A program made the position numbers and the translations under genes. From contig JAKSPB010000022.1 of assembly GCA_024405215.1 (NCBI GenBank), positions 1 to 54,542 of the forward strand: 54,542 nt of DNA, given 5' to 3'. The DNA comes from Lentisphaeria bacterium (GTDB lineage: Bacteria; Verrucomicrobiota; Lentisphaeria; Oligosphaerales; Oligosphaeraceae). Below are positions 32,716 to 51,867 of this stretch, one piece after another. The notes under the pieces were generated by a model, which saw nothing but the letters and a program-made list of their open reading frames with translations, had not been told where the DNA came from and did no database searches. Within the stretch, counting starts at the first letter, position 1. Every line of letters starts with the position of its first letter.

Positions 32716-34080
32716 ATGACAAACGGTTGGAACAGGGATGACGAGGGACATTTGCGACGGGAAATGCGGCATCGGATGGGCCGTCGGTTGACGGGATGGG
32801 ATTACCGTCGGACGGGGCATTATGTGATTACCATCGTGCTTGCCGAACGCAGTTCGCAGGCTTTGGGGAAATTGATGGTGAGGAAAATCCCGGACGGGGT
32901 GTGGCTTCCCGTGATGCAGGCGAAGGAGATGGGGCTGCAGCCGGAAGACATTGAGGCGCGGGTGGAGTTCAGCGAATTGGGGCGGGCGGTCTTCGAACAC
33001 TTCCAGCGGATGGGCGAGTTTACGCCTGGGGTGAAGCCGGTCTATTGCGCAGTCATGCCTGACCATCTGCATCTTCTGCTCAAAGTGGAAAAGACGTTGG
33101 CGAGGCCTTTGGGGAATGCCATCGGAGGGTTCAAGACGGGTTGCGAAAAGATTCATGCACGAACGGGCGGCGCTGGGCGGCTTTTTGCCGAAGGGTTTGT
33201 CGATCATGTGATTCTGCGGGAAGGGCAACTTGCCGCAGAGTTCAACTATCTGCTGGATAATCCGCGACGCCTGGCCATCAAGAGACTTTTTCCGGAACTC
33301 TTCAAGGTGGTGCGACGGGTGGGGATTCCCTTGCGGCTTGCGCCGCAAGCGCAGGACGGACGGGGGAAGGCGGCATTGGCCACATCTTCCGAGATTGGGC
33401 AAAATCCATCTTCCGAGATTGGGCAAAATCCATCTTCCGTGATTGGGCAAAATCCATCTTCCGTGATTGGGCAAAATCCGGTTGCGGATGGGGCAATTGT
33501 CCGTTCTGCGCCGGCGGCGCAAGCCGTCGGTTGGTTCTCGGCCCTCGGCAATCACTTTCTTTTGCAGCGCAGCCTTGTGCAGGTGCAGGTGTCGCGGCGG
33601 GATTTCGGCTACCGGCGGTCCGATGGCCGCATTGTTCGCGATGCGAATGGTATTCCGGAAATTGCCTTCGCTACGCCCGAATACGCGGCGCGGCATGATA
33701 TGCTGCTGGCAGCTGCCAGCCAGGGTGCGGTATTGCTTTCCCCTTGCGTTTCAGATGGCGAGCGGCAGATTGCCCGGGAGGCGCTAGATGCGGGATTGCC
33801 GTTGATTACCTTGCAGAACAAGGGCCTTGCCCCGGTGCAAAAGCCATCCGGGCGGTATTTCGAGGCCTGTTCCGCCGGTCGCCTTCTGATGTTGGCGCCG
33901 ATTGCCTGGCCTTTTCAGCCAGGGGAGAAGCCGATGACAAGAGGGGATGCCACGGCGTTGAACCGCATCTCCCAGTGGCTTGCGGGCGATGGCGCAGCTG
34001 AAGTCAACTACCATGGCCTGGAACCGTCGAATGTCGATCAATTGGCCCTGGATGCAATTTGCATCCGTCTTTGCGGATAA
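32716..34080 (+). CDS. RAYT-type (Y1) transposase with extra C-terminal domain
   Basis: A 454-aa protein. Residues about 10-215 resemble REP-associated tyrosine transposases: the metal motif MPDHLHLLLKVE gives His-x-His, and FNYLLDNPRRLAI carries the likely nucleophile Tyr followed by the Asn-Pro-x-Arg seen in Y1 enzymes. A linker (about 220-265) contains four copies of an 8-aa unit SS[E/V]IGQNP. A C-terminal domain of ~190 residues (GAVLLSPCVSDGERQIAREA, PLITLQNKG, FEACSAGRLLMLAP) looks like a Rossmann-type, SLOG/DprA-like nucleotide-binding fold; this is inference. ATG 32716 with AAGGGAG 8 nt upstream is preferred over GTG 32656. No insertion-sequence ends flank it, so it looks like a domesticated single-copy gene. 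Confidence 0.75.
   Translation: MTNGWNRDDEGHLRREMRHRMGRRLTGWDYRRTGHYVITIVLAERSSQALGKLMVRKIPDGVWLPVMQAKEMGLQPEDIEARVEFSELGRAVFEHFQRMGEFTPGVKPVYCAVMPDHLHLLLKVEKTLARPLGNAIGGFKTGCEKIHARTGGAGRLFAEGFVDHVILREGQLAAEFNYLLDNPRRLAIKRLFPELFKVVRRVGIPLRLAPQAQDGRGKAALATSSEIGQNPSSEIGQNPSSVIGQNPSSVIGQNPVADGAIVRSAPAAQAVGWFSALGNHFLLQRSLVQVQVSRRDFGYRRSDGRIVRDANGIPEIAFATPEYAARHDMLLAAASQGAVLLSPCVSDGERQIAREALDAGLPLITLQNKGLAPVQKPSGRYFEACSAGRLLMLAPIAWPFQPGEKPMTRGDATALNRISQWLAGDGAAEVNYHGLEPSNVDQLALDAICIRLCG
33331..33530. repeat. Inverted pair of REP-like hairpins flanking a tandem repeat
   Basis: Hairpin 1 (33331-33348) is TTGCGGC-TTGC-GCCGCAA. Hairpin 2 (33511-33530) is CCGGCGGC-GCAA-GCCGTCGG. They share a 13-bp inverted repeat (CGGCTTGCGCCGC) and point in opposite directions, as in REP doublets (REPINs). 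Between them are four 24-bp repeats. The whole 200 bp lies inside the RAYT-like gene in frame, in the linker between its two domains. Confidence 0.6.
33385..33480 (+). repeat. Four tandem 24-bp units
   Basis: Four nearly identical 24-bp units in frame, each encoding Ser-Ser-[Glu/Val]-Ile-Gly-Gln-Asn-Pro. Units 1 and 2 have GAG and units 3 and 4 GTG at codon 3, so the array probably grew by pairwise duplication. Slippage would change length by 8 residues without a frameshift. Confidence 0.95.
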
Positions 34081-34203: not shown

Positions 34204-35277
34204 ATGGCATTGAAGAAGTGTTCCGTGGGCATCCACAAGCAGTGTGTGGAAATCAAGGCCGGAGATCTGCGCCTGGCCGTGACGACGAAGGTGGGACCCC
34301 GGATTATCGGGTGTTTCATCGGCGATAGTGATTTCAACCATTTCGCCGTCCTGCCGGCGACGGCCTATCCCGGCGTGGACAACGGTTTCGTCCTGTATGG
34401 CGGGCACCGCCTGTGGCATTCTCCTGAAGAACTGCCCCGCACCTACGAGCCGGACAACGATCCCGTCAAGGTGGTCCAGCAGAAGACCGGCGTGGAGTTC
34501 ATCTGCAAGCCCTGCGAGGCCACGGGGATGCTCAAGAAGATCTTCGTCGAGCCGCTGGAGAACGGCTTGATCTGCGTGACGCACACCATCGAGAACACGG
34601 GGATGTGGCCTGTGGAGCTGGCCCCCTGGACCCTCTCCCAGATGGCGCCCGGCGGCGTCTGCATCATGCCCTTGGGCACCGATCCCGAGGGCTATCCCTT
34701 CGCGCCCGACCGCAAGCTGAACTTCTGGCCCTACACGGATCTCAAGGACAAGCGCCTGGCGCTTGGCTCCGACTACATCATGGTCAAGTCCGATCCCAAG
34801 TGCGAGAAGTCCCTGAAGATCGGCTACAACAACTTCGCCGGCTGGGTCGCCTACGTCAACAACGGCCAGGCCCTGGTCAAGTATTTCGACTACGACTTCG
34901 AGGGCGCATATTCTGACGACGGCTGTTCCAACGAATGCTACACCTGCAAGGACTTCACGGAAATGGAGTTGCTGGGCGCCAAGGAGACCCTGGAACCCGG
35001 CGAGGCCGTCCAGTTCGTGGAATACTGGCAGGGCATTGACGGTCTTCCCAAGATCGCCACGGAGAAAGACATCGCGAAGCACCTCATGGAGCACCTCCTG
35101 GTCCAGGAAGGCGACTGCTGCTGCGACGACGACTGCTGTTGCGAAGAGGAAGGCGACGACTGCTGCGACGACGACTGTTGCTGCGGACATCACCACCAGC
35201 ACGGCGACTGCTGCTGCGAGGACGAGGAGGCGGAAGCCCCCAAGGCCGAAAAGAAGAAGTGCGGCAAGAAGAAGTAG
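34204..35277 (+). CDS. DUF4380-like protein with Cys/Asp/His-rich tail
   Basis: A 357-aa protein. Residues about 1-295 fit a galactose-mutarotase-like beta-sandwich of the DUF4380 type (VGPRIIGCFIGDSDFNHF, NGFVLYGGHRLWHSPEE and TIENTGMWPVELAPWTLSQM). The tail from about 304 is extraordinary: five Cys clusters (CCC, CCC, CC, CCC, CCC) spaced by Asp/Glu runs, then HHHQH, giving 14 Cys and 4 His in about 35 residues, and a Lys-rich end with one more Cys. It looks like a metal-binding or metal-sensing appendage, or a low-complexity expansion. No signal peptide. AGGAGA precedes the ATG. Codons are overwhelmingly C-ending, as in fucI, which suggests high expression. The substrate of the sandwich domain is unknown. 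Confidence 0.8.
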   Translation: MALKKCSVGIHKQCVEIKAGDLRLAVTTKVGPRIIGCFIGDSDFNHFAVLPATAYPGVDNGFVLYGGHRLWHSPEELPRTYEPDNDPVKVVQQKTGVEFICKPCEATGMLKKIFVEPLENGLICVTHTIENTGMWPVELAPWTLSQMAPGGVCIMPLGTDPEGYPFAPDRKLNFWPYTDLKDKRLALGSDYIMVKSDPKCEKSLKIGYNNFAGWVAYVNNGQALVKYFDYDFEGAYSDDGCSNECYTCKDFTEMELLGAKETLEPGEAVQFVEYWQGIDGLPKIATEKDIAKHLMEHLLVQEGDCCCDDDCCCEEEGDDCCDDDCCCGHHHQHGDCCCEDEEAEAPKAEKKKCGKKK

Positions 35278-42430: not shown

Positions 42431-42476
42431 CGAATCTCGGGGTGCGTGTCCGTCGAATCTCGGGGTGCGTGTCCGT
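42431..42476. repeat. Tandem duplication of 23 bp
   Basis: Two identical 23-bp copies (42431-42453 and 42454-42476), each starting CGAATCTCGGGG, sit in the 102-bp gap between recN and the TPR lipoprotein gene. They could be an operator pair or a recent slippage product. Confidence 0.9.
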
Positions 42477-42499
42477 CGCGCCCCGCAACAATGGGGGAA

Positions 42500-51671: not shown

Positions 51672-51711
51672 GGCATTTGCAGTGTCGAAGACAGGGCAAA
51701 TGCCTTTTTTT
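51672..51711 (+). terminator. Intrinsic terminator after the pseudopilin
   Basis: GGCATTTGC (51672-51680) pairs perfectly with GCAAATGCC (51695-51703) and is followed by a run of eight T. Confidence 0.92.
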
Positions 51712-51767
51712 AGCGAGCTATATACCTAAGTTGCCGTTATTGATTGGCGATACGGACTTGTCCCGGG

Positions 51768-51787
51768 CCCGAGGCGCAAGCCTCGGG
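51768..51787 (+). repeat. REP-like GCAA-loop hairpin upstream of the GH2 gene
   Basis: CCCGAGGC-GCAA-GCCTCGGG is a perfect 8-bp stem closed by a GNRA loop. It has the same stem length and core GGCGCAAGCC as hairpin 2 at 33511-33530 in the RAYT gene. It lies 80 bp before the GH2 start and could be a REP singlet or a leader element. No other structure is seen between 51712 and 51867. Confidence 0.55.
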
Positions 51788-51867
51788 AAAACGCAGCGTC
51801 AGAACACGCAAGCGACATAAGTATGTAATTCCTTTTTTTAGCCTAACCAATGCAGGAAAGAGCAACC

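What the first reader, a model, noticed from the sequence alone, without database searches (positions are those of the whole stretch)
33331..33530. A RAYT-like transposase gene carries an inverted pair of REP-like hairpins in its own domain linker
Two hairpins in opposite orientation (loop TTGC versus GCAA, shared 13-bp core CGGCTTGCGCCGC) flank four 24-bp in-frame repeats inside the gene for a Y1/REP-associated transposase. REP doublets (REPINs) are the known substrates of RAYTs but normally lie in intergenic DNA. Here the doublet sits exactly between the Y1 domain and a C-terminal Rossmann-like domain and remains in frame. A similar singlet hairpin occurs at 51768-51787. This suggests either a self-targeted insertion that became a peptide linker or an autoregulatory binding site for the transposase on its own gene or mRNA.
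Basis: partly seen in the sequence, partly recalled or inferred. Interest (0 to 1): 0.66.

Follow-up and report, generated by a model that had tools for sequence, protein, structure and literature searches.

The report
Transposase gene carrying its own REPs
A gut bacterium's REP transposase gene carries, in frame, an inverted pair of the small DNA hairpins (REPs) that such enzymes are thought to recognise; most of its relatives in gut Lentisphaeria and Kiritimatiellae do the same, a larger and fused-domain version of a habit already reported for one other transposase group.

Summary
The 454-aa gene at 32716-34080 encodes a Y1/HUH REP transposase joined to a DprA-like domain. Its disordered linker is encoded by an inverted pair of REP units, each a head GTYCTGCG, an 8-bp stem and a GCAA loop (33330-33357 minus, 33503-33530 plus), flanking four 24-bp in-frame repeats. 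Synonymous shuffles almost never give this (mean 0.008 units against 2).
The exact 13-bp core occurs nowhere else in the genome, but head and loop recur in dispersed repeats, including the 51768 hairpin and an intergenic inverted pair. Among 81 genes of this family (window plus 80 relatives), 66 carry in-frame REP units: 61 hairpins have a perfect head against 0.4 expected. Units cluster at five loops, mostly as inverted pairs. The nearest relative (61% identity) keeps both hairpins, the right one with compensatory stem changes, but not the 24-bp array.
In-frame REPs inside transposase genes are already published for TnpAREP subclass 2.4 (Quentin 2018), so the kind is known. New here are the DprA-like fusion family, the non-GTAG head, the linker site and the scale.
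Best reading: transposase-spread REPs repeatedly enter and turn over in tolerant loops of their own gene. Autoregulation is possible but untested.

The parts
32716..34080 (+). RAYT-like gene, 454 aa: Y1/HUH transposase domain + disordered linker + DprA-like Rossmann domain
33055..33072 (+). HUH motif MPDHLH (residues 114-119; M114, H117 and H119 invariant in the 19-row alignment)
33247..33249 (+). Tyr178 in YLLDNP, the class-2 (Y---NP) catalytic tyrosine; Y178, N182, P183 invariant
   Evidence: motif definition from PMC6006769
33330..33357 (-). REP unit 1, read on the minus strand: head GTCCTGCG + CTTGCGGC(GCAA)GCCGCAAG
33383..33479 (+). four in-frame 24-bp repeats (CATCTTCCGNGATTGGGCAAAATC, peptide SSEIGQNP / SSVIGQNP); found only here in the genome, absent in nearest relative L296
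33503..33530 (+). REP unit 2: head GTTCTGCG + CCGGCGGC(GCAA)GCCGTCGG (one G.T pair); ends 4 nt before codons FSALGN of the C-terminal domain
33334..33526 (.). the inverted pair as a whole (REPIN-like): 28-nt arms, 25 of 28 complementary
33508..34065 (+). C-terminal DprA-like Rossmann domain (residues about 265-450)
   Evidence: bridging ORFs
51704..51835 (+). one copy of the dispersed ~130-bp imperfect palindrome whose core CCCGAGGC(GCAA)GCCTCGGG is REP-like (here with a degenerate head)

Best explanation
The element is an inverted pair of REPs (REPIN-like) lying in frame in the gene of a REP-associated HUH transposase (RAYT/TnpAREP). The transposase family is fused to a DprA-like domain and found in gut Lentisphaeria and Kiritimatiellae. 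Shown here: the gene, the REP architecture (head GTYCTGYG, 7-9 bp stem, short loop), its recurrence at five loops of the protein in most relatives, its enrichment in these genes over flanking DNA, and its rapid turnover between close relatives. Inferred: the family's HUH enzyme recognises head plus hairpin on single-stranded DNA and drives REP insertion or copying. Its own gene is hit most, through cis preference or local amplification. Insertions survive only where they stay in frame and encode a flexible linker or surface loop. The 24-bp array is a later lineage-specific tandem expansion between the two REPs. The linker peptide itself is probably a tolerated spacer between the nuclease and the DprA-like domain.
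For: REP architecture and inverted pairs in the window and relatives. In 81 genes: 61 hairpins with a perfect head against 0.4 in synonymous shuffles; 165 units (head with up to 2 mismatches) against 19.9; 66 of 81 genes; adjacent pairs 33 (-+) against 8 (+-); hot spots at two Y1 loops, the linker, a CTD loop and the C-terminus. Unit density 1.05/kb in the CDS, 0.45/kb within 400 bp, 0.068/kb farther out. 37 of 47 relative pairs at 75% identity or more differ in unit count at some site. The REP found in g10 RAYT genes is dispersed in three g10 genomes (25, 25 and 14 sites), and other genes there hold in-frame copies (MetH, ABC-F, SNF2, DUF6259). In g7, 7 of 14 REP sites of one genome lie in or near its two RAYT genes. 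Own genome: 43 head+stem pattern hits against 10 control and an intergenic inverted pair (L218). The linker is disordered in the model. dN/dS is roughly 0.1-0.15 between L043 and L044, which both carry in-frame REPs. HUH and Tyr are invariant.
Against: No binding or cleavage data. The head is not the canonical GT[AG]G. The window's two stems match no other genomic copy exactly. The window gene has no REP unit within 1.5 kb, unlike a classical REPtron. Its nearest relative L296 keeps both hairpins while both heads have decayed, which fits selection on the hairpin, or palindrome-correcting mutation, better than ongoing recognition. No empty orthologous site at species level was found, so insertion itself was not seen.
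Confidence: 0.62

Rival explanations
1. The in-gene hairpins are kept for a job: the transposase binds them in its own mRNA or gene and limits its own expression, or cis-binding marks its gene as the source copy (autoregulation).
For: 81% of genes in the family sample carry units. The right-hand hairpin sits at the same codon position (4 nt before FSAxGN) in window, L296, L312, L245 and L255. Six of 8 stem pairs change on both sides across 8 genes with pairing kept, including window versus L296.
Against: 15 of 81 genes have no unit, and the site and number change quickly. REPs also lie in frame in unrelated genes. Heads decay in L296. The 8 genes were picked for having hairpins, so 100% pairing is partly by construction.
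Confidence: 0.22
2. The hairpins are products of local mutation: tandem duplication of short GC-rich units plus quasi-palindrome (template-switch) correction in a loop under weak protein constraint, with no role for the transposase.
For: In-frame tandem arrays are common. L045 and L042 differ by a short in-frame tandem gain. Template switching can perfect palindromes and mimic covariation (general knowledge).
Against: The specific head abuts hairpins 61 times against 0.4 expected. Near-identical REPs are dispersed elsewhere in the genomes. Enrichment in RAYT genes over distant flanks is about 15-fold. Inverted-pair order is biased.
Confidence: 0.12
3. Ordinary low-complexity protein linker; the DNA hairpins are coincidental.
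For: The linker is disordered.
Against: Synonymous-shuffle tests; the linker is absent or different in relatives.
Confidence: 0.02

Closest known systems
TnpAREP subclass 2.4 with REPs inserted in frame in tnpAREP genes (Quentin et al. 2018, PMC6006769)
   Same: REP sequences inside the transposase gene without breaking the frame, in a peripheral variable region; class-2 Y---NP motif.
   Different: [quoted passage not shown] Here the head is GTYCTGYG, the window pair lies after the Tyr in a linker to a DprA-like domain, and the HuH is DHLH rather than NH[IFV]H.
REPIN / RAYT systems (Bertels and Rainey 2011, PMC3116915)
   Same: Two inverted REPs with a spacer that together form a long hairpin; a Y1 transposase gene in the same genome.
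   Different: Typical REPINs are extragenic and numerous; this pair is intragenic and its stems are unique in the genome.
Intragenic GTAG/CGTC REPs (Di Nocera et al. 2013, PMC3733652) and Rickettsia palindromic elements
   Same: Palindromes encoded in frame in diverse genes; seen here too in MetH, ABC-F, SNF2 and other genes of relatives.
   Different: Those hosts are unrelated genes, many of them DNA repair genes; here the transposase gene itself is the main host.
DprA / ShosA (DprA-like Rossmann fold)
   Same: The C-terminal domain's best PDB fold matches are ShosA (8zva, E 2.6e-4) and DprA structures (probability up to 1.00).
   Different: No Pfam DprA match in the window protein; profile comparison with true DprA is weak; the domain is fused to a HUH transposase.

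Membership tests
RAYT / TnpAREP (class 2 TnpAY1) | HUH motif and Y---NP catalytic tyrosine | tested here: met
   PDHLH and YLLDNP; H117, H119, Y178, N182, P183 invariant in 19 sequences
RAYT / TnpAREP (class 2 TnpAY1) | Fold of TnpAREP / IS200 Y1 transposase | tested here: met
   Foldseek ranks 1-2: 2xm3 (ISDra2) and 4er8 (TnpAREP with REP hairpin), E about 1e-4, probability 1.00
RAYT / TnpAREP (class 2 TnpAY1) | Passes the NCBIfam NF047646 cut-off | tested here: not met
   E 1.4e-8, 34.7 bits against cut-off 80; relatives also fall below it
RAYT / TnpAREP (class 2 TnpAY1) | Gene flanked by REPs (REPtron) | tested here: inconclusive
   None within 1.5 kb of the window gene; several relatives have flanking units; 28 units within 400 bp at 13 of 81 loci
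RAYT / TnpAREP (class 2 TnpAY1) | Cleaves or binds REP ssDNA | not testable with these tools
   needs biochemistry
REPIN | Two REPs in inverted orientation forming a long hairpin | tested here: met
   28-nt arms, 25 paired; DNA fold z -5.0
REPIN | Canonical GT[AG]G head | tested here: not met
   Head is GTYCTGYG across the family
REPIN | Replicating population of copies in the genome | tested here: inconclusive
   Exact stems are unique; same head and loop dispersed and one intergenic inverted pair
TnpAREP subclass 2.4 | REPs in frame within the gene | tested here: met
   this locus and 66 of 81 genes in all
TnpAREP subclass 2.4 | Insertion between HuH and Y; no C-terminal extension; NH[IFV]H | tested here: not met
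   Window pair lies after the Tyr; DprA-like extension present; DHLH
DprA | Pfam DNA_processg_A match | tested here: not met
   No match in the window protein; only bridging ORFs L243/L244 match, just below cut-off
DprA | DprA-like Rossmann fold | tested here: met
   Model of pLDDT 92; best-ranked matches are ShosA and DprA chains, though TM-scores are moderate, about 0.45-0.49

The most novel reading that the evidence does not exclude
A HUH transposase family fused to a DprA-like ssDNA-binding domain keeps its recognition hairpins inside its own coding sequence as a working cis element. The enzyme binds its own gene or mRNA, which couples REP spread to self-limitation, and the DprA-like domain hands the nicked ssDNA to recombination.
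Probability: 0.2. Interest if true: 0.78.

Novelty: new variant of a known kind. Interest (0 to 1): 0.55.

Why it matters
How RAYTs spread REPs, and why these domesticated transposases persist, is open. Here is a large RAYT family (303 loci in one genome scan, best 80 examined) in gut bacteria, for which no study was found in the held library. Its genes carry their own candidate substrates in frame, with a diagnosable head, matched dispersed copies and fast turnover. That makes RAYT specificity and cis preference directly testable, and it offers a second molecular context: fusion to a DprA-like domain.

Tried and rejected
(1) Core-only search: two exact copies, both in this gene; with 2 mismatches no more than chance. 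The core is the wrong signature. (2) A 13-bp core or 24-bp array dispersed in the genome: none. (3) Rfam on dispersed copies: no family. (4) Pfam, PHROGs and PADLOC on the window protein: no useful hit. (5) Sequence profile of the C-terminal domain against PDB sequences: none; profile-profile comparison with DprA weak, so the DprA link rests on fold and bridging ORFs. (6) A first genome scan with the single protein found nothing; an alignment of close members found 303. (7) In-frame REPs as a RAYT-only trait: rejected, other genes carry them too. (8) Long ORFs spanning REPs in the own genome (L212 10370, L197 9725): judged intergenic or antisense after reading the neighbouring ORFs. (9) One ancestral origin of linker pairs: the tree needs at least 2 changes, with weak support and a long window branch.

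Full report
CHECK. I add that each hairpin carries the same 8-nt head facing inward: minus strand GTCCTGCG-CTTGCGGC(GCAA)GCCGCAAG at 33330-33357, plus strand GTTCTGCG-CCGGCGGC(GCAA)GCCGTCGG at 33503-33530. Shuffling synonymous codons gives 0.008 such units on average (2 observed) and never as good a 28-mer inverted repeat. Folding z-scores are -5.0 (DNA) and -5.9 (RNA). The protein sequence alone does not explain the DNA structure.

HOST PROTEIN. The product has HUH (PDHLH) and Tyr178 in YLLDNP, all invariant in 19 homologues. NCBIfam's REP transposase model matches below its cut-off. A 19-row AlphaFold model (pLDDT 82) shows two folded domains; residues 215-264, encoded by this region, are disordered. 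Foldseek matches the N-terminal part to ISDra2 TnpA and to TnpAREP bound to a REP hairpin (4er8). The C-terminal domain (pLDDT 92) matches ShosA and DprA best. No Pfam DprA hit exists in the window protein and the profile comparison is weak, but two ORFs of a relative genome give intermediate matches. I call it DprA-like, not DprA.

OWN GENOME. The core and the 24-bp unit occur only here. The pattern head + GC..GC stem end occurs 43 times against 10 in the control. Most belong to a ~130-bp imperfect palindrome with core GTCCTGTG-CCCGAGGC(GCAA)GCCTCGGG, about 46 copies in 0.745 Mb sampled (the contigs sampled were ones known to hold hits, so this is only a rough density). An intergenic inverted pair with heads inward and tandem repeats between (L218:5971-6212, G000:C78) has the same layout as the in-gene pair.

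RELATIVES. The same two-domain protein is present in many genomes of the order. Linkers differ: same-genus G002 (L047) lacks the insert; others carry different in-frame repeats. A scan of GTDB genomes found 303 relatives; the 80 fetched come from records named Victivallales, Kiritimatiellae, Lentisphaeria/Lentisphaerae, Verrucomicrobia or unnamed bacteria, many from ruminant or horse gut. In these 80 plus the window, 152 perfect GC-rich hairpins of 8 bp or more lie in the coding sequences against 14.3 in synonymous shuffles. In a wider hairpin scan (7 bp or more, one G.T allowed) the head GTYCTGYG abuts 61 hairpins perfectly, against 0.4 expected, and 66 of 81 genes carry a unit with up to 2 head mismatches; adjacent pairs are mostly (-+), heads inward. 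Units cluster at five sites: a loop after the second strand, the loop before the W motif, the Y1-CTD linker, a CTD loop and the C-terminus. Density is 1.05/kb in the CDS, 0.45/kb within 400 bp and 0.068/kb beyond. Of 47 pairs at 75% identity or more, 37 differ in unit count.

NEAREST RELATIVES. L296 (61% identity) and L312 (57%) are closest. L296 keeps the left hairpin (29 of 31 nt) and, at the same place, a right hairpin CCGACTGT(GCAA)ACAGTCGG whose stem differs from the window's at three pairs while pairing is kept; its heads are degenerate and the 24-bp array is absent, replaced by other repeats. Across 8 genes chosen for a hairpin near this junction, 6 of 8 pairs vary on both sides (pairing itself is partly by selection of the rows). 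L312 carries exactly the core of the dispersed repeat of the window's genome, with head GTCCTGCG.

DISPERSED COPIES. In genus g10 the in-gene REP (CCCGCGCATTCTTGYGCGGG) is scattered at 14-25 sites in three genomes, some in frame inside other genes: cobalamin-dependent methionine synthase (MetH), an ABC-F ATPase, an SNF2 helicase, a glycoside hydrolase, DUF6259 proteins. So in-frame tolerance is not a RAYT-only property; the RAYT gene is simply a rich host. Purifying selection on L043/L044, both REP-bearing, is clear (dN/dS about 0.1-0.15).

KNOWN BACKGROUND. Quentin et al. 2018 (PMC6006769) reported in-frame REPs inside subclass 2.4 tnpAREP genes, generally between HuH and Y. Di Nocera et al. 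2013 (PMC3733652) reported in-frame REPs in other genes. Searches for RAYT with DprA and for Kiritimatiellae with REPs returned no relevant paper in the held library, which does not prove none exists. Hence 'new variant of a known kind': DprA-like fusion, non-GTAG head, linker site, family-wide scale.

MECHANISM. Best supported: RAYT-driven spread of REPs that lodge and turn over in tolerant loops of the family's own gene. Steps shown: anatomy, recurrence, enrichment, turnover, disorder. Steps inferred: recognition of head+hairpin, cis preference, role of the DprA-like domain. Selection on the hairpins (autoregulation) and palindrome-correcting mutation are live rivals, because heads decay in L296 while stems stay paired.

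Noticed in passing
window 51704-51835; L195, L196, L207, L221 and others: Dispersed ~130-bp imperfect palindrome (about 46 copies in 0.745 Mb of this genome, some in tandem) with a REP-like GCAA-loop core; no Rfam match. Could be a REP-derived compound element or a structured RNA.
   Followed up: partly
L088, L099, L095, L114, L113, L111: In genus g10 genomes REPs are encoded in frame in conserved genes (MetH linker, ABC-F, SNF2 helicase, glycoside hydrolase, DUF6259).
   Followed up: partly
L243, L244 (one genome of the order): ORFs without a recognised Y1 domain that match Pfam DprA just below cut-off (one also matches the RAYT C-terminal profile); possible relatives of the fused domain.
   Followed up: partly
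L037, L039, L053, L056 flanks: Other members seem to have other heads (GTTCGGTG, GTKACCGYGG, GGTCCGGTT), suggesting head divergence between subclades.
   Followed up: partly
L212:574-730: Three REP-like units GTTCTGTG-CCCGGGGC(GCAA) spaced about 53 bp in tandem in the own genome.
   Followed up: no
window 34204-35277: Gene with no Pfam match whose C-terminal tail is a Cys/Asp/His-rich repeat (42-bp unit at 35105-35185), metal-binding-like.
   Followed up: no
window 42431-42478: Perfect 23-bp tandem repeat, 2.1 copies.
   Followed up: no
L043:3960-4177 (minus): Cobalamin riboswitch (RF00174) near a relative's RAYT gene.
   Followed up: no
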